NCBI GenBank assembly: GCA_019084245.1
Contig: JAHRFE010000044.1
Coordinates: 1-52,000, forward strand
Reading direction: 5' to 3'
Source: Hoeflea sp.
GTDB lineage: Bacteria > Pseudomonadota > Alphaproteobacteria > Rhizobiales > Rhizobiaceae
Length of the DNA: 52,000 nt
A model generated the notes under the pieces. It was given only the letters and a program-made list of their open reading frames with translations. It had not been told where the DNA came from and searched no databases. This document shows positions 12,447 through 47,387 of the stretch, one piece after another. A program made the position numbers and the translations under genes. How positions within the stretch are numbered: the first letter of the stretch is position 1; each line of letters begins with the position of its first letter.

Positions 12447-13541
12447 ATGACCAAGTTACCATTGTTGAAGAAAATTTCCGAACTGACCCGTAGCAAGGAC
12501 GGAAACTTCGCCATGATGGCCGGAATTTTGGTGCCCGTGCTTTTCATGGCCGGAAGCTTCGCTCTTGACACCACCAATACGCTGTCAATGAAGACGCGTT
12601 TGCAGAACGCTGTCGACAGCGCCGCGTTGGCGACTGCGACACGGCTCTACAAGGAAGACAATCTCAGCATCGCGGATGCTAAGGCCTTTGCCGCGGACTT
12701 CCTGCAGGGTCAGGTAGAAGAAGACAAGTCTGCATTTTCCGACTTTTCGATTTCGCCAGCGATCACCATCACCAAGGTCGTCGACAATGGCCGCACCATC
12801 TGGCAGGTGGCAATTGCCGTGACCGGAACGCACGAAGCAACGCAGATGGCTCGCCTGATGGGTCGGGACAAACTGAGCGTCAGCGTGGCGGGTAAATCTG
12901 AAAGCGGGTCTGCGTCGTCGCAAGGCTCCATCTCCATGGCATTGGTGCTTGACCAGTCAGGATCAATGGATTGGACGCTTGACGGACAAAAGAAGATTAA
13001 CGTGCTCAAGACCGCAGTTTTCGGCTTGGTCCAGCAGTTCAAAAAAGTTGACCCCAAAGGTGACTATATTCGACTCGGCTCGGTCAGTTACAACTCTGCC
13101 GTGACCGGAAAACAGAACATAACCTGGAATATTGACTCGGTACGCAGTTTCGTCGGTAATTTAGGTGCAACTGGTGGAACGGATTCAACGGATGCTTTCA
13201 AATGGGGGTACCATAAAATCAATTCCCCGACCGAAACAACCGAACACAACACAAGAACAGGTCAGGAACCAGAGCGGATAATTGTTTTCATGACCGATGG
13301 TGACAACAATCATTATTCCGCCGATACATCGACAAAATTGCTTTGTGATAAGGCAAAGGCAGACGGGCTCACTGTTTACACGGTTGCGTTCGCCGCACCT
13401 GATCGTGGCAAGAAACTTCTGTCCTATTGCGCCGACCAGCCTGAGCACTACTTCGACGCAAAGAACAGCCAAGAGCTAATAGACGCCTTCAAAAACATCG
13501 GTGAACAGACTTCAGAAGTCGTTTCGCGGATCACTCAGTAG
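12447..13541 (+). CDS. TadG-like pilus-assembly protein with vWA domain
   Basis: The 364-residue protein starts with a TadE/G-type membrane anchor: a basic tip, then FAMMAGILVPVLFMAGSFALDTTN, followed by RLQNAVDSAALATAT, the signature of Flp-pilus-associated proteins. A von Willebrand A domain occupies about 165-350, with the metal-ion site DQSGS (DxSxS), the TGGTDS threonine and the FMTDGDN aspartate. Such proteins localise to the inner membrane and periplasm and help assemble tight-adherence pili or bind surfaces. No other tad/cpa gene is near, so it is an orphan copy. The ATG at 12447 with upstream GAGGT is preferred over an in-frame ATG at 12411. Confidence 0.85.
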   Translation: MTKLPLLKKISELTRSKDGNFAMMAGILVPVLFMAGSFALDTTNTLSMKTRLQNAVDSAALATATRLYKEDNLSIADAKAFAADFLQGQVEEDKSAFSDFSISPAITITKVVDNGRTIWQVAIAVTGTHEATQMARLMGRDKLSVSVAGKSESGSASSQGSISMALVLDQSGSMDWTLDGQKKINVLKTAVFGLVQQFKKVDPKGDYIRLGSVSYNSAVTGKQNITWNIDSVRSFVGNLGATGGTDSTDAFKWGYHKINSPTETTEHNTRTGQEPERIIVFMTDGDNNHYSADTSTKLLCDKAKADGLTVYTVAFAAPDRGKKLLSYCADQPEHYFDAKNSQELIDAFKNIGEQTSEVVSRITQ

Positions 13542-41347: not shown

Positions 41348-41857
41348 TCAGAGTTTGCCGTCGTCCCAGATGACATGTTCGGTCGTGCCGGGCAGGTTCT
41401 CGATGCGATCGGCAAGAAACACCGGCGGCAGCGGCAGCGCCTCAAGGCAGGCGCGGGTGGCCGGAACCCATTTGAACTCCAGATGGTTCTTGCCGTCCGC
41501 GATCTCGTGCACGATCCGGCCGTCGCGCGCGAAGGGAAAGTCCGGCGGGATGTCCATGCGGTAGTACCAGCCGATCTCGTGCCAGTCCCGGCCTTCGAAA
41601 TGGAAGAAATTCTCGACCAGGAACACCAGCTGTCCGACGGTCACCGTGACGCCGAGTTCCTCCTCCATCTCGCGCACAAGGGTCGTGCGGCTGTCCTCGC
41701 CCAGTTCCGCGGTGCCGCCGGGAATGGTCCAGAACGGCTCATGCACCGCCCGGTGGATCAGAAGATGGCCGTCGCGCAGCGCCAGTCCGGCGACCCGGGC
41801 ATTGAAGCGGCGGCCCTGATCGTTGAAGCGGATGGTCTTGCGGCTCTTGTGGCTCAT
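41348..41857 (-). CDS. Nudix hydrolase
   Basis: The 169-residue protein has the Nudix box GX5EX7REXXEE-G, seen as [22 protein letters not shown] at about 48-69. It cleaves nucleoside diphosphates linked to another moiety; the substrate is unknown. It overlaps ruvB by 4 bases (ATGA), so it is the last gene of the ruv unit. Confidence 0.88.
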
Positions 41858-42891
41858 TCGTCTTCAAACAGGCTCGCCTGGGTGGCGGCGAGATCCTTTG
41901 GCGGATTGAGCCCCATGTGCCCCCAGGCCCGCGCCGTCAGCACCCGGCCGCGCGGCGTGCGCTGCAGGAACCCCTGCTGGATCAGGTAGGGCTCGATGAT
42001 GTCCTCGATGGCGTCGCGCGGCTCCGACAGGCCGGCGGCGATGGTTTCGATCCCCACCGGCCCGCCGCCGAAATTGCGCACGATCATGTCGAGATAGCGC
42101 CGGTCGAGCTGGTCGAGCCCGATACTGTCGACCAGGAGCCGGGTCAGCGCCTCGTCGGCTATGGTCTTGGTGACGGCCTCGACCTTGGCCACTTCGGCGA
42201 AATCGCGCACCCGCCTCAGGAGCCGTCCGGCGATGCGCGGCGTGCCGCGTGCGCGGCGGGCGATCTCGAGCGCGCCGTCATCGGTCATGGCGAGCCCCAT
42301 GATGCGCGCGCCGCGGCGCACGATCAGCTCGAGCTCGGCGACGGTGTAGAATTGCAGCCGCACCGGGATGCCGAACCGGTCCCGGAGCGGCGTGGTCAGC
42401 AGCCCGAGCCGCGTGGTGGCGGCAACCAGCGTGAACCGCGACAGGTCGATTTTGACCGAACGCGCAGCGGGGCCCTCGCCGATGATCAGGTCGAGCTGGA
42501 AATCCTCCATCGCCGGATAGAGGATTTCCTCGACCGCCGGGCTCAGCCGGTGGATCTCGTCGATGAACAGCACGTCACGGTCTTCGAGATTGGTCAAAAG
42601 CGCCGCGAGATCGCCGGCCTTGGCGATCACCGGGCCGGAGGTGGAGCGGAAATTGACGCCGAGCTCCTTGGCCATGATCTGCGCCAGCGTGGTCTTGCCG
42701 AGGCCCGGCGGGCCGACGAACAGCACGTGGTCGAGCGCCTCGCCGCGCCCCTTGGCGGCTTCGATGAACACTTTCAGATTGGCCCGCGCCTCGGCCTGGC
42801 CGGTGAACTCGTCGAGCGTTTGCGGGCGAAGCGTGGTGTCGAAATCCTCGCCGCGCTTGTCGGGGGTGATCAGGCGATCGGCATCGCTCAT
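41854..42891 (-). CDS. ruvB: Holliday junction branch-migration helicase RuvB
   Basis: The 345-residue AAA+ motor has Walker [10 protein letters not shown], Walker [10 protein letters not shown], sensor [19 protein letters not shown], and a C-terminal winged helix ([18 protein letters not shown]). It drives branch migration with RuvA. Its ATG overlaps the stop of the upstream PIN toxin gene (42888-42891), so its translation is coupled to a toxin gene, and it overlaps the Nudix gene downstream. Confidence 0.96.
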
Positions 42892-43292
42892 GCGAGGAAC
42901 TCCATGCCGGATATCCTGGCAGCTGCCCTCTGGTCGAGCGTCACCACATGGGTGCAGTCTGCATCCAGGCAGAGATGGGCGATCAGCATGTCGGCGAAAT
43001 CCCCCACGCCAGTCTCGACGCCACCGATGGCTTTGACAACGGCATCTGCCGACTGGACTTCGACACCGCGCAGCTGCGTGATTTTCCTCAAAGCGGAGGC
43101 ACTTTCCGGCTTGCTGAAGCCATATTGCTTGCGAAGCGCCCAGTCGATCTCAACCAGGCTGATCAGGGTGACGAAGCCAGCGTAGCTGTGCCCCAAACCC
43201 TGGCCGAAGGCCAGCACCGCTTTGCGCTGTTCGGGGTCATCGTCCACCAGCAATCTGAGCAAGACGTTTGTATCGATGCCGACTTTGTTCAC
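42888..43292 (-). CDS. PIN-domain toxin, VapC type (module 1)
   Basis: The 134-residue PIN ribonuclease has the acidic residues GIDTN (Asp 7), SLVEID (Glu), GDFADMLIA (Asp) and VTLDQRAA (Asp). VapC toxins cleave tRNA or rRNA to stop translation. It overlaps its antitoxin gene by 4 bases (43289-43292) and overlaps ruvB by 4 bases. Confidence 0.88.
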
Positions 43293-43570
43293 GCGGCCTG
43301 CCCCTTGGATGTCTTCCGGGGCTTTAATGCTGTCTCGCTGGCAGCGGAAGCGATCGTCTCTTCGATTTCATCCAGAGTGGCGGGCCCGTTTGGCGGCGAC
43401 CCGAGAAAGCCAGCAAGGTCGGAAAAGCTCAAAGTCTTGGGCGTAAGAATAAGCCGGCCGTCATCAACCGTGAACATCACCTTATCGTTGGGCTTCAGCC
43501 CCACCGCATCCCTGATGTCCTTTGGCAAGGTGATCTGCCCTTTTTCCGACAGAACGATTTCTTTCCGCAT
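43289..43570 (-). CDS. AbrB/MazE-type antitoxin (module 1)
   Basis: The 93-residue protein has an N-terminal SpoVT/AbrB swapped-hairpin DNA-binding domain (VLSEKGQITLPKDIRDAVGLKPNDKVMFTVDDGRLIL). The C-terminal helical tail should bind the toxin. Upstream at 43593-43601 is the small dyad CTAGACTAG, a possible operator. It lies 85 bases after the end of the second module. Confidence 0.85.
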   Translation of the reverse strand: MRKEIVLSEKGQITLPKDIRDAVGLKPNDKVMFTVDDGRLILTPKTLSFSDLAGFLGSPPNGPATLDEIEETIASAASETALKPRKTSKGQAA

Positions 43571-43655
43571 TCTTCTGTCCTTTCCTACTTTTCTAGACTA
43601 GTCGGACGTTGAACAGAAAACAAGAAAACACCCGCCCACCGCACCGGATCGGAAC

Positions 43656-44054
43656 TCAAGACAGCAGTTCCATGCCAGGAACCGACGCCGCGGCCCTGCG
43701 ATCGAAGGTTACGGTTTTCTCGCATCCATTCGCACGGTTGAGATCCGCAATGACAACATCCGAGAAACCCGGATGCGCCGAGTTCAGCCACGAAGTCCAG
43801 TTCTCCATGCGCAGCATCTCCGGCACCCTGATTTCGACCGTATCGAGCAGACCCGCGAGCTGTTTGCGAGCTGTCACCCGGTCCACCTTGTAAACCCGCT
43901 CCAATACCCAAATCGTTTCCAAGATCACCACCGGATTGACAAACAATGGAGCGCTAGCGCTGCTGGCACTGACAAGGGAAACGGCCGCATCAAACTGCTC
44001 CGGGTCGTCACGGGTCAGAAGCCGAACCACGATGTTGGTGTCAATTCCGATCAC
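43656..44054 (-). CDS. PIN-domain toxin, VapC type (module 2)
   Basis: The 132-residue PIN protein contains GIDTNIVVRLLTRDDPEQ, the Glu in ILETIW, the Asp in FSDVVIAD and the Asp in VTFDRRAA. The start is placed at the GTG at 44054, which overlaps the antitoxin stop by 14 bases (44041-44054). An ATG at 44099 would add 15 non-family residues and overlap by 59. It is diverged from the module-1 toxin, so the modules are separate acquisitions or old duplicates. Confidence 0.85.
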   Translation of the reverse strand: MIGIDTNIVVRLLTRDDPEQFDAAVSLVSASSASAPLFVNPVVILETIWVLERVYKVDRVTARKQLAGLLDTVEIRVPEMLRMENWTSWLNSAHPGFSDVVIADLNRANGCEKTVTFDRRAAASVPGMELLS

Positions 44055-44307
44055 GGGACCGCTCGTACCGGTCGGAAATGGCTTCGCCGATCGACTCATT
44101 CATGGCCTCGATGGAAACCGGTGCCCGGTCCGGGTCGAACAGCACGCCGGCGAACTCAAGAGCACTCCGGTTCTTCGGCACCAGCACCACTTTGCCGTCA
44201 ACGAATTCGTAGCCGATGCGGTCGCCAGCGCCGAGCTTGAGATACTCCCGAACCTCGATCGGAATGGTTGTCTGACCTTTTGTGGTGATCTTTGATTCGA
44301 TGCCCAT
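44041..44307 (-). CDS. AbrB/MazE-type antitoxin (module 2)
   Basis: The 88-residue protein has the AbrB domain KITTKGQTTIPIEVREYLKLGAGDRIGYEFVDGKVVLVPK and a toxin-binding tail ending DRYERSRDRN. An inverted repeat at 44328-44352 upstream is its likely operator. It lies 69 bases after ruvA. Confidence 0.86.
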   Translation of the reverse strand: MGIESKITTKGQTTIPIEVREYLKLGAGDRIGYEFVDGKVVLVPKNRSALEFAGVLFDPDRAPVSIEAMNESIGEAISDRYERSRDRN

Positions 44308-44327
44308 TTCCTTGCCTCAAGCAAATT

Positions 44328-44352
44328 TCCTTACTTAGCAATCTAGTAAGGA
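44328..44352. promoter_or_regulatory. Inverted repeat operator of TA module 2
   Basis: TCCTTACT (44328-44335) and AGTAAGGA (44345-44352) are perfect 8-bp arms with a 9-base centre, 21 bases upstream of the antitoxin ATG. This fits an autoregulatory AbrB/VapBC site. Confidence 0.65.
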
Positions 44353-44376
44353 ATTGTCCCTTTCACAAGGAGCAAC

Positions 44377-44997
44377 TTACCGTGCCAGTTCCTTCAACCC
44401 CAGCCGGATCAGCTTCGCCGAATCGGGGTTCTCGCCGGCATTTTTCAGCGCGGCGGCCACCGCGGTGGCTGCCTGGTCGCGGGAATAGCCGAGATTGCTG
44501 AGCGCCGAGACCGCATCCGCCACCGGCGCGGGCGCGACGCCCTCGCCCAGTTCCTGCCTGAGGCCCATGGCGCCGCCGGTCGTCTCGCCCGAATAGGCTG
44601 GCGCCTTGGTCTTGAGCTCGGTTACGATGCGCTGCGCCACCTTGGGCCCGATGCCCGGGGCACGGGCGATCATCGCCTTGTCCTGCAGCGCGATGGCGTT
44701 GGCGAGATCGGAGGCCGTCAGCGTCGACAGCACCGCCAGCGCCACCTTGGCGCCCACCCCCTGGACGCTCTGCAGGAGCCGGAACCATTCGCGTTCCAGC
44801 GCCGTGGCGAAGCCGAACAGGCGGAACTGGTCCTCGCGCACATAGGTCTCGATGTGGAGCACCGCCGCCTCGCCCACCGATCCGAGCCGCGACAGCGTGC
44901 GGGTCGAGCAATAGGCCACGTAGCAGACGCCGTGCACGTCGATCAGCACGTGATCTTCGGCGATTTCCTCGATGCTGCCCTTGAGTTTGCCGATCAT
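44377..44997 (-). CDS. ruvA: Holliday junction DNA-binding protein RuvA
   Basis: The 206-residue protein has an N-terminal OB domain ([28 protein letters not shown]), two helix-hairpin-helix motifs ([16 protein letters not shown] and [17 protein letters not shown]) and the C-terminal RuvB-binding three-helix domain after a flexible linker. The ATG at 44997 overlaps the stop of the upstream PIN gene (44994-44997). Confidence 0.96.
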
Positions 44998-45407
44998 GGG
45001 TGCGTATCCGGGGCAATGATGTCGAGCGTCGGGAAATAGCTGCGGTAGCCGGCGGGATCGCGCGTCAGCAGCCGGTGACCCCGGACCACCGCATGTGCGC
45101 CGATCAGGAAATCGGGCAAAGTGCGCTCGCGGCTGCCTCCATTGTTGCGGTAGATCCGGAAGGCCCTCCCCGCCGCGAAAGCCGAACCCCATGGAAGGTG
45201 CTCACGCTGGAACTCGGAAGGGTCGAGCAGCGCATCAACTTCTTCCAAGGACTCGTAGCGGTAGGAAAACTCACTGAAGATCACCGGATTGATGACCAGA
45301 GCGCCCATCTTGAGCGCCTCCGCCATCCGGCCACGTGACCAGTCCCGCCAATCCGGATCGCGAAAGGCGACATCGATCAGGACATTTGTATCGACCAGAG
45401 TCGCCAT
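44994..45407 (-). CDS. PIN-domain toxin, VapC type (module 3)
   Basis: The 137-residue PIN protein has [23 protein letters not shown] and [14 protein letters not shown]. The last segment is typical of another VapC subgroup than modules 1 and 2. It follows its antitoxin by 3 bases and overlaps ruvA by 4 bases (ATGA), so its translation is tied to ruvA. Confidence 0.88.
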
Positions 45408-45410
45408 GTC

Positions 45411-45662
45411 CTAGCGATCCCGCGTTTCGCGCATCACGTCGTCCGCGCTGAGCGTCGGGTCGCCGGTGCCCTCGAGCCGGTCGAGCGCGGCAAGAAACCG
45501 CGCAAGACGCTGCCTGTCGGCCTTCCGTTCGCCGCCATCCTTGGCTTCGAGGAAAATCCGCCCGCCTTCCACAGAGAAGACAACCTCGCTGTTGGCCTCG
45601 ATTCCTGCCAGATCGCGAAGGTTCTTCGGGATCGTCACCTGACCTTTTTCCGAAACGCGCAC
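45411..45662 (-). CDS. AbrB/MazE-type antitoxin (module 3)
   Basis: The 83-residue protein has SEKGQVTIPKNLRDLAGIEANSEVVFSVEGGRIFLEAK (AbrB domain) and a charged tail RLARFLAALDRLEGTGDPTLSADDVMRETR that should wrap the toxin. It lies 71 bases after ruvC with a dyad at 45680-45698. Confidence 0.87.
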   Translation of the reverse strand: MRVSEKGQVTIPKNLRDLAGIEANSEVVFSVEGGRIFLEAKDGGERKADRQRLARFLAALDRLEGTGDPTLSADDVMRETRDR

Positions 45663-45679
45663 CTTGTCACTCCAAGTCT

Positions 45680-45698
45680 GAATAATTCCAACTTATTC
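45680..45698. promoter_or_regulatory. Inverted repeat operator of TA module 3
   Basis: GAATAA (45680-45685) and TTATTC (45693-45698) with a 7-base centre, 18 bases upstream of the antitoxin start. It is unlike the module-2 dyad, so each module probably has its own autorepressor site. Confidence 0.55.
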
Positions 45699-45733
45699 CG
45701 ACCCGCAGAACACGTCAAGAACAAAGAGGCACG

Positions 45734-46240
45734 TCACTCCGCCGCCATGCGCCAGGCAAGCGATGTGCGGTGATGCGCGTGGCAGATGGCGATGGCCAGC
45801 GCGTCGGCGGCGTGATCGCTGTCGAACGTCGCCTTGGGCATCAGCACCCTGACCATCATGTGGATCTGCTTCTTGTCGCCGTGGCCGACGCCGATGACCG
45901 CCTTCTTGACGGCGTTGGGTGCATATTCCGCGACGCGCAAGCCGGCCCGCGCCGGCACCACCATGGCGATGCCGCGGGCCTGGCCGAGCTTCAGGGTCGC
46001 GGTGGCGTCCTTGTTGACGAAGGTGTTTTCAACCGCTGCCTCGAACGGCTGGTAGAAGTGCAACACGCTTTCCAGCCCGTCATAAAGCTGCTTCAGTCGG
46101 GAGGCGAGATCGAGCTTTGCATCGGACTTGACCGTCCCCGACGCGACGAAGCGCAGCGAATTGCCAAGCGTTTCGACAACGCCCCAGCCGCTGTTCCTGA
46201 GCCCGGGATCAATCCCGATAATCCGAATCGCTTCTGCCAT
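45734..46240 (-). CDS. ruvC: Holliday junction resolvase RuvC
   Basis: The 168-residue RNase-H-fold nuclease has the acidic site [13 protein letters not shown], the Glu in AVENTF and [11 protein letters not shown]. It resolves four-way junctions with RuvAB. The start is the ATG at 46240 with AGGA upstream; a TTG two codons earlier is possible. It is the first gene of the split ruv cluster. Confidence 0.95.
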
Positions 46241-46400
46241 GCTCAAATCCTATCCGTGACGGACTGAGCTTTCCATCACAAAGGTGAACAAACCAAAAAC
46301 ATATACGATCGCGCAGACTTGCGTTTTGCATTCCCATGATCGGTACCTACATGAAAGCAATCAAAGCTGCTCCCATGCCAGCCCCCATGAAAGTTTTCCC

Positions 46401-47387
46401 ATGACCGCTTTTTCAATTCTCGATCTCTGCCCCGTCGTCGAGGGCGGCACCGTGGGCGAAGCCCTCGCCAACACGCGCCTGATGGCCAAGCAGGCGGAGG
46501 AATCGGGGTTCACCCGCTTCTGGCTGGCCGAACATCACGGCATGAAAGGCATCGCGAGCGCAGCCACTTCATTGGTCATTGCCGAGGCGGGGCATGCGAC
46601 CAGCACCATCCGCATCGGCTCCGGCGGCATCATGCTGCCCAATCATTCACCTCTGGTCATCGCCGAGCAGTTCGGAACGCTAGAAGCGTTGTTTCCTGGA
46701 CGCGTCGATCTTGGCCTCGGCCGCGCGCCGGGGACCGACATGAACACTGCCCGCGCGCTCCGGCGAAATCTAGAATCGGGCGCCAACAGCTTTCCCGATG
46801 ACATTCTCGAACTGCAGCACTGGCTGGGCGACCCCGATGACGGCAAGCTGATCGCGATCCCGGGCGCCGGATCCCATGTGCCGCTTTGGATCCTCGGATC
46901 GAGCCTCTACAGCGCCCATCTGGCGGCAGCACTCGGGCTGCCCTATGCCTTTGCCTCGCATTTCGCTCCCGACATGCTGTTTGAGGCGCTCGACATCTAC
47001 CGGGACAAGTTTACCCCGTCCGCGCAACTCGCAGCGCCTTACGTGATGGCCGCCGCCATGGGCGTGATGGCCGATACCGACGAGGAAGCCGCCTATCTGT
47101 TCACAACCCTGCAGCAGACCTTCGTCAACATGCGCCGCAACGCCCGCGGCAAGATGCCGAGGCCGATTGACACGATGGATGGATTCTGGACCGACGTGGA
47201 GAAGATCGCCGTCGATCACATGTTGCGCTATTCGGTGGTGGGCGGCCCGGACACGGCGATCCGCCAGATGCGTAGCTTCATCGACGCCACAAACGCCGAT
47301 GAGATCATGATTTCGATGCCGATCCACTCCTCGAAAGCACGGCTCCGATCGGTCGAACTCTTCGGCGAGATGCGCAAGGCGCTCTGA
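46401..47387 (+). CDS. Luciferase-like (LLM class) flavin-dependent monooxygenase
   Basis: The 328-residue protein is a TIM-barrel LLM flavoprotein. It has [42 protein letters not shown], the [34 protein letters not shown] segment typical of YhbW-like members, and [10 protein letters not shown] near the end. Substrate is unknown; it needs FMNH2. The start is the ATG at 46401, because the earlier in-frame ATG (46284) adds a non-homologous leader. Confidence 0.88.

What the first reader, a model, noticed from the sequence alone, without database searches (positions are those of the whole stretch)
41348..46240. Three toxin-antitoxin modules embedded in the ruvCAB operon
The minus strand reads ruvC, vapBC-3, ruvA, vapBC-2, vapBC-1, ruvB, Nudix. 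Three AbrB/PIN pairs sit between genes that are normally adjacent in this order. Modules 2 and 3 have clear dyads and module 1 a weak one. The toxins differ from one another in their motif context, which argues against a single recent tandem duplication. Toxin 3 overlaps ruvA and toxin 1 overlaps ruvB by ATGA, so making the resolvase-complex proteins is coupled to making RNase toxins. It may be a preferred, selectively protected landing site: any deletion of the modules would hit an essential-type repair operon. It could also tie DNA-repair output to toxin dosage.
Basis: partly seen in the sequence, partly recalled or inferred. Interest (0 to 1): 0.85.

Follow-up and report, generated by a model that had tools for sequence, protein, structure and literature searches.

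The report
SOS-linked toxin–antitoxin cassettes inside ruvCAB
In this bacterium and many of its relatives, small toxin–antitoxin gene pairs sit inside the genes for a key DNA-repair machine, and one of the pairs carries what looks like its own DNA-damage switch, so toxin and repair genes seem wired to the same alarm.

Summary
The layout is real: ruvC–vapBC3–ruvA–vapBC2–vapBC1–ruvB–Nudix, one strand, with ATGA overlaps vapC3/ruvA and vapC1/ruvB. It is not a one-off. VapC genes recur in the ruvC|ruvA gap (slot 1: 12 of 18 congeners, 22 of 68 readable other genera) and the ruvA|ruvB gap (slot 2: 18 of 18; 21 of 66). In a tree of 126 slot toxins the two slots never mix; modules 1 and 2 are both of the slot-2 kind. 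Active-site acids are kept and selection is purifying.

The new point: the slot-1 cassette carries a LexA box (window 45708–45722) over a candidate −35, beside the antitoxin-type dyad. The box is in 60 of 63 slot-1 VapC loci against 8 of 103 others, in each module of three tandem loci, and in none of 15 off-ruv relatives, 18 other PIN loci of this genome or 70 slot-2 spaces. So vapBC3–ruvA(–ruvB) looks like a doubly repressed, SOS-induced unit. Expression, binding and toxicity are untested. My searches of an open-access library found no paper describing this; one reports a vapBC–ruvAB run in R. leguminosarum.

The parts
46286..46300 (-). LexA-like box GTTTTTGGTTTGTTC (7 of 8 key bases) upstream of ruvC
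   Evidence: GTTY-N7-GTTC within 150 nt upstream of ruvC in 118 of 166 loci
45734..46240 (-). ruvC, Holliday-junction resolvase
   Evidence: PF02075, TIGR00228
45708..45722 (-). LexA (SOS) box GTTCTTGACGTGTTC, starting 12 nt beyond the last base of ruvC; TTGACG inside it is a candidate −35
   Evidence: −35 reading is inference
45676..45702 (-). inverted repeat, candidate VapBC3 operator, overlapping the candidate −10
   Evidence: its place relative to a promoter is inference (one search found no promoter at its threshold)
45411..45662 (-). vapB3 antitoxin (AbrB/MazE fold)
44994..45407 (-). vapC3 toxin, slot-1 PIN family; ATGA overlap with ruvA
44377..44997 (-). ruvA
   Evidence: (TIGR00084)
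44309..44371 (-). imperfect inverted repeat, candidate VapBC2 operator
44041..44307 (-). vapB2 antitoxin
43656..44054 (-). vapC2 toxin, slot-2 PIN family (GTG start; ATG at 44099 possible)
43583..43606 (-). weak palindrome, candidate VapBC1 operator
43289..43570 (-). vapB1 antitoxin
42888..43292 (-). vapC1 toxin, slot-2 PIN family; ATGA overlap with ruvB
41854..42891 (-). ruvB
   Evidence: NF000868
41348..41857 (-). Nudix hydrolase, start overlaps ruvB stop by 4 nt

Best explanation
The ruvCAB operon of this family and some near relatives has two recurrent resident sites for type II VapBC modules. The slot-1 module is an SOS cassette: a promoter with a LexA box over its −35 and an antitoxin-type dyad next to it drives vapB–vapC–ruvA and, by read-through, the rest of the operon. 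Without damage, LexA and the VapBC complex would both hold it down; on DNA damage LexA is removed, so VapBC and RuvA(B) rise together, and loss of the unstable antitoxin would free VapC RNase while RuvAB is made. Slot-2 modules lack a LexA box but mostly end in a 4-nt overlap with ruvB, so ruvB translation would be coupled to vapC translation. Modules are gained, lost and swapped as cassettes at these two points, probably by recombination through the conserved ruv genes. SHOWN by sequence: layout, recurrence, slot-specific toxin families, LexA box and its association with the cassette, overlaps, purifying selection. INFERRED: LexA binding, co-transcription, coupling, toxicity, exchange by recombination, a benefit of pausing growth during repair.
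For: Recurrence and orientation: (0 of 128 PIN and 0 of 127 AbrB ORFs found in slots of at least 380 bp are on the opposite strand). Slot-specific toxin families: (65 slot-1 and 61 slot-2 rows; one change between labels). In G026, G037 and G044, where ruvAB has parted from ruvC, vapBC is still between ruvA and ruvB. LexA box: 60 of 63 slot-1 VapC loci against 8 of 103 others; 19 independent pairs on supported branches, on average 16.6 agree and 0.0 disagree (one disagrees in a few of the 200 pairings), median p 1.5e-5. Each module of the tandem slot-1 loci L089, L109 and L147 has its own box. Controls: 0 of 18 other PIN loci of this genome and 0 of 15 off-ruv relatives of toxin 3, 0 of 70 slot-2 spaces. 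The same motif class stands before lexA and, 270 nt off, uvrA of this genome and, with one key-base mismatch, before recA; GTTC-N7-GTTC is the published α-proteobacterial LexA motif (PMC3323433, passages). Function kept: dN/dS 0.07–0.20, acidic positions intact in 119 of 128 rows. Exchange: slot-1 dS is below ruvC+ruvA dS in 28 of 28 (non-independent) pairs; identity rises at the cassette borders; G004, with ruvC DNA 93% alike, has an unlike slot-2 module. In R. leguminosarum 3841, vapB, vapC, ruvA and ruvB are one gene run and all four are classed as needed for root attachment (PMC11406972, passages).
Against: No expression, binding or toxicity data for these genes. The consensus promoter scan found no site at its threshold, so the −35/−10 reading is weak. 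Bare GTTC-N7-GTTC is hardly enriched genome-wide (138 against 118 for the reversed control); of 12 hand-picked other matches I fetched, only 2 lie before known SOS genes. ruvC has its own LexA-like box, so SOS induction of ruvAB need not depend on the cassette. 95 of 166 loci have neither slot-1 VapC nor the internal box, so the cassette is dispensable; L058 and L177 have VapC without the box. Only 21 of 66 slot-1 toxins overlap ruvA; the rest end 7–27 nt before it. Lower slot-1 dS could partly reflect codon make-up (GC3 0.70–0.80 against 0.74–0.91 in ruvC/ruvA) rather than transfer.
Confidence: 0.6

Rival explanations
1. Selfish haven: the cassettes persist because insertion inside a conserved, always-expressed operon is tolerated if transcription and the ribosome hand-over downstream are kept. 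The LexA box is there only to keep ruvAB SOS-inducible past the insertion; the toxin has no role in DNA damage.
For: Orientation and the stop/start overlaps look like constraints for keeping ruv expression. Presence is patchy, fewest changes 33 and 31. Eight loci have the same LexA box before ruvA with no vapBC and no detectable remnant, as expected if SOS control of ruvA itself is what selection sees. In Vibrionaceae, LexA sites at ruvAB are reported alongside genes inserted after ruvC (PMC3323433, passage).
Against: The box stands before each module in tandem loci, including an upstream module that does not need it to serve ruvA. Toxins are kept under purifying selection with intact active-site positions. 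Two slot-faithful families over many genera are more than random insertion would give.
Confidence: 0.3
2. General core-operon embedding: VapBC modules in this order lodge in several essential operons as addiction modules, and ruv is just one address.
For: A vapBC lies between ilvB and ilvN in the same genome and in G009, G028, G026, G069, G050, G040 and G109.
Against: Among the loci checked in this genome only ruv slot 1 has the LexA box; the ilv module has none. A relative of the ilv-type toxin is found at E 1e-15 in 14 of 151 genomes, fewer than the ruv slots are filled; in three of those 14 the place I looked at had no ilv flanks (L214, L216, L220).
Confidence: 0.25
3. Three independent chance landings in one genome, without lasting association.
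For: Patchy presence among close relatives; some broken copies.
Against: Slot-specific families shared across many genera and retention when the operon is split.
Confidence: 0.02

Closest known systems
Caulobacter crescentus higBA–higX (PMC13384398, passages)
   Same: α-proteobacterial type II TA pair with LexA and antitoxin on one promoter; the LexA site lies in the extra stretch that comes with higBA and puts a conserved downstream gene under it.
   Different: HigBA, not VapBC; the downstream gene is a LytTR regulator, not ruvAB; higBA there is restricted to one lineage.
E. coli dinB–yafNO (PMC2814082, passages)
   Same: TA pair in an SOS repair operon, autoregulated and damage-induced.
   Different: RelE-type toxin after the repair gene; mitomycin induction came from the dinB promoter, not the TA's own.
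R. leguminosarum 3841 RL3987–RL3990 vapBC–ruvAB (PMC11406972, passages)
   Same: Evidently a slot-1 case: vapB, vapC, ruvA, ruvB in a row.
   Different: One strain; the passages I saw name no LexA box, slot 2 or recurrence, and 'ruvC' occurs 0 times in the main text.
ruvCAB with LexA sites and inserted genes in Vibrionaceae (PMC3323433, passages)
   Same: Operon disrupted by inserted genes with LexA control kept at ruvAB; putative LexA sites also reported for the α-proteobacterial ruvCAB promoter.
   Different: The passages I saw do not call the inserted genes toxin–antitoxin pairs ('vapC' and 'PIN domain' occur 0 times in the main text).

Membership tests
Type II VapBC toxin–antitoxin | Toxin with PIN domain | tested here: met
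   PF01850 above cut-off for all three
Type II VapBC toxin–antitoxin | Conserved acidic active-site residues | tested here: met
   D-E-D-D positions in the three window toxins and in 119 of 128 slot rows; which residues are catalytic is recalled
Type II VapBC toxin–antitoxin | Small DNA-binding antitoxin directly upstream | tested here: met
   PF04014/TIGR01439 hits; 3-nt gap (module 3) or overlap (modules 1, 2) with the toxin gene
Type II VapBC toxin–antitoxin | RNase toxicity neutralised by the antitoxin | not testable with these tools
   needs expression assays
SOS (LexA) regulon | LexA-type site at the promoter | tested here: met
   45708–45722, GTTC-N7-GTTC, 8 of 8 key bases; motif from PMC3323433 (passages)
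SOS (LexA) regulon | Site conserved across relatives with the cassette | tested here: met
   60 of 63 against 8 of 103
SOS (LexA) regulon | LexA binding and induction by DNA damage | not testable with these tools
   no transcript or binding data
Mobile element cargo or integron-like cassette | Integrase, transposase or attachment repeats at the borders | tested here: not met
   none of the ten genes called from ruvC to Nudix is one; borders are the ruv stop and start codons. Attachment repeats were looked for only by eye

The most novel reading that the evidence does not exclude
The slot-1 VapBC is an exchangeable SOS cassette that makes Holliday-junction repair and a growth brake one damage-induced unit: LexA release fires vapBC–ruvAB, VapC cuts RNA to pause growth while RuvAB repairs, and these bacteria trade alternative VapBC alleles at this fixed address while the LexA box stays constant.
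Probability: 0.3. Interest if true: 0.87.

Novelty: new variant of a known kind. Interest (0 to 1): 0.76.

Why it matters
Chromosomal VapBC pairs rarely have a signal that can be named (recalled). Here a VapBC lineage with a fixed address, a constant LexA box and a fixed partner operon offers a direct test of what a chromosomal toxin–antitoxin pair is for. It also bears on how conserved repair operons tolerate and use inserted genes, and adds a likely SOS target in genera such as Rhizobium and Mesorhizobium.

Tried and rejected
Recent triple tandem duplication: rejected, as toxin 3 is in another family and toxins 1 and 2 share only 31%. Inert relics: rejected, though broken copies exist. LexA box as a general VapBC feature: rejected by 0 of 18 and 0 of 15 controls. 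LexA box as a feature of every ruvC–ruvA gap: rejected, 95 of 103 loci without slot-1 VapC lack it. Link between filling of slot 1 and slot 2: no support from independent pairs (median p 0.29). A relic of vapBC in the eight box-only spacers: none found. Strict σ70 promoter scan: no hits. Solved relatives by sequence: none for toxin 3; one weak hit for toxin 2 (8wmm, E 5.2e-5); for toxin 1 only a protein-A fusion entry (5h7b, E 0.0011).

Limits of the counts. Of 60 order-level genomes, I fetched ruv regions of 11, mostly those with the most similar RuvC; ruv regions of G095 and G135 were fetched later for other reasons. Slot 1 could not be read in 4 and slot 2 in 6 of the 72 other genera. The toxin tree is a quick one of 139 columns with 38 of 162 inner branches starred; 18 off-ruv rows fall inside the slot-2 part, so slot 2 is not shown to be one clade. 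The off-ruv rows are top hits of three searches and VapC loci of this genome that a slot-trained profile finds, not all VapC genes. The ruv tree is FastTree on RuvC+RuvA+RuvB, whose genes may themselves recombine. In the 60-site table eight of 15 positions are fixed by the search pattern. The control windows are up to 600 nt (18 loci; one shorter) and 370 nt (15 loci; one of 244). The 12 further motif places were picked by hand from the first 100 listed. Papers: apart from the five whose passages I cite, and Makarova-type survey PMC2701414 and PMC10945364 (passages), listed papers were seen as listings only; for instance PMC7790460, PMC7536270 and PMC13432907 hold both kinds of term and were not opened.
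Full report
1. Observation. The minus strand reads ruvC, vapB3–vapC3, ruvA, vapB2–vapC2, vapB1–vapC1, ruvB, Nudix. Pfam supports every toxin and antitoxin. ATGA overlaps join vapC3 to ruvA and vapC1 to ruvB. The terminator scan of 41800–46500 gives one minus-strand site, inside vapB1, and none between genes.

2. How common. In 151 genomes (the window's and 150 relatives), RuvC was found in 150. I read the ruv region of the 18 genomes of the genus (window included), of 72 other genera of the family, of 11 genomes of the order, and 80 named loci found by RuvB. A VapC gene lies in the ruvC|ruvA gap (slot 1) in 12 of 18 congeners and 22 of 68 readable other genera, and in the ruvA|ruvB gap (slot 2) in 18 of 18 and 21 of 66; in the order sample it is 1 of 10 and 0 of 10. 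Three further genera (G026, G037, G044), where ruvC and ruvAB lie apart, still have vapBC between ruvA and ruvB, as does G095 of another family. Among named loci it is 31 of 74 and 17 of 79, for example in Rhizobium tropici, Shinella yambaruensis, Mesorhizobium neociceri and Agrobacterium bohemicum records. All detected modules run with ruv, antitoxin first. Of the spaces of at least 380 bp, 8 of 74 in slot 1 and 14 of 70 in slot 2 hold no VapC; many of these hold another open frame.

3. Two slot families. In a tree of 165 VapC domains, the 65 slot-1 and 61 slot-2 rows need a single change between labels. Of 21 rows from elsewhere on the slot-1 side, 15 form one separate supported group. The 18 rows from elsewhere on the slot-2 side fall inside it, so slot 2 is not shown to be a single clade. 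Slot 1 holds two main subtypes; L089 and L109 carry one of each in tandem. Window toxins 1 and 2 are distant members of the slot-2 family: toxin 2 belongs to a group of 14 rows, all from the genus; the nearest copies of toxin 1 are in L087 and L093. L087 has the same double slot 2, and L093 has module 1 plus an antitoxin-2-like remnant without toxin 2.

4. The SOS box. GTTCTTGACGTGTTC (45708–45722) starts 12 nt beyond ruvC. GTTC-N7-GTTC is the published LexA motif of α-proteobacteria (PMC3323433, passages). In this genome the motif also lies before lexA and, 270 nt off, before uvrA (2 of 12 hand-picked places), and with one mismatch before recA. Bare matches are frequent (138 in the genome against 118 for the reversed control), so the case rests on position and conservation. 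Over 166 loci with all three ruv genes, the exact motif is near the start of slot 1 in 60 of 63 with a slot-1 VapC and in 8 of 103 without; in L064, one of the three exceptions, it stands directly before the antitoxin further into the slot, and L058 and L177 have none. Nineteen independent pairs on the ruv tree agree in 16.6 on average and disagree in 0.0 on average (one in a few pairings), median p 1.5e-5. Of the seven spacer positions that the search pattern leaves free, five are invariant in 60 sites, one is 59 of 60 and one varies. In L089, L109 and L147 each module, including an antitoxin without toxin, has its own box. None of 15 off-ruv relatives of toxin 3, none of 18 other PIN loci of this genome and none of 70 slot-2 spaces has it. 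ruvC has a second, weaker LexA-like box upstream (46286–46300).

5. Are the toxins kept? Between the window and congeners, dN/dS is about 0.07–0.18 for toxin 3 among like alleles, 0.09–0.18 for the two nearest toxin 2 copies and 0.13–0.19 for the two nearest toxin 1 copies (computed); slot-1 toxin plus antitoxin give 0.07–0.20 over 28 pairs. The four acidic positions are intact in 66 of 69 slot-1 and 53 of 59 slot-2 rows. Broken or reduced copies: L091 (toxin 3 in two frames), L096 (short antitoxin, toxin with a stretch missing), L093, L147, L153, L157.

6. Coupling. Slot-2 toxins overlap the ruvB start by 4 nt (ATGA or GTGA) in 50 of 56 loci; slot-1 toxins overlap ruvA in 21 of 66 and otherwise end 7–27 nt before it.

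7. Exchange. Among eight congeners with the same slot-1 allele, synonymous divergence of the cassette (median 0.28) is below that of ruvC+ruvA (median 0.69) in 28 of 28 pairs, which are not independent. For L081, L088, L092 and L087 identity rises at the cassette's 5' border and falls near the start of ruvA. In slot 2, G004 has ruv genes 92–94% identical to the window but an unlike module. I read this as cassette exchange through flanking ruv genes; different codon make-up is a partial alternative.

8. Mechanism. Shown: anatomy, recurrence, box, overlaps, selection. Inferred: LexA and VapBC both repress the slot-1 promoter; damage induces vapBC3 and ruvA(B) together; vapC1 translation feeds ruvB. 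In R. leguminosarum 3841, insertion data class vapB, vapC, ruvA and ruvB alike as needed for root attachment at all three pH values (PMC11406972, passages). That fits one transcription unit, but vapB has fewer than six insertion sites there and the data do not separate polarity from a toxin effect. The authors describe the pair as a VapBC system next to ruvAB.

9. Known relatives. The closest working analogue is Caulobacter higBA, repressed by LexA and HigA, whose own LexA site puts a downstream conserved gene under SOS (PMC13384398, passages). E. coli dinB–yafNO is a TA pair in a repair operon (PMC2814082, passages). Eight searches of the open-access library listed no paper that by title, abstract start or the passages I opened describes VapBC in ruvCAB across genera or its LexA box. 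Most subscription papers and preprints are not held; I saw 20 of 32 and 12 of 51 papers, and most listed papers were not opened.

10. Verdict. The new element is the SOS cassette. I call it a new variant of a known kind (a LexA-controlled TA pair), at an unexpected and recurrent place.

Noticed in passing
L236:1803-4990 (window's own genome, G000:C27 about 378300-381490): A further vapBC sits between ilvB and ilvN (acetolactate synthase large and small subunits); the same layout is in G009, G028, G026, G069, G050, G040 and G109. No LexA box before the one in this genome.
   Followed up: partly
L242:1-1680: A DarT/DarG pair with a GTTC-N7-GTTC match (GTTCTATTTTTGTTC) about 200 nt inside the darT frame as called.
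   Followed up: no
L063, L108, L136 slot 1: In these loci slot 1 holds another gene of about 295 aa instead of vapBC (L063 and L136 look like one genome); its family was not established (one search used a wrong frame).
   Followed up: no
L044, L071, L115, L132, L145, L159, L169, L171 slot 1: The same LexA box lies before ruvA without any vapBC; whether this is a forerunner or a leftover is open.
   Followed up: partly
window 13255-13269 (-): Another GTTC-N7-GTTC match, GTTCCTGACCTGTTC, with a TGAC centre; context not examined.
   Followed up: no
L147 slot 1: An antitoxin without a toxin that still has its own LexA box, upstream of a complete module.
   Followed up: no
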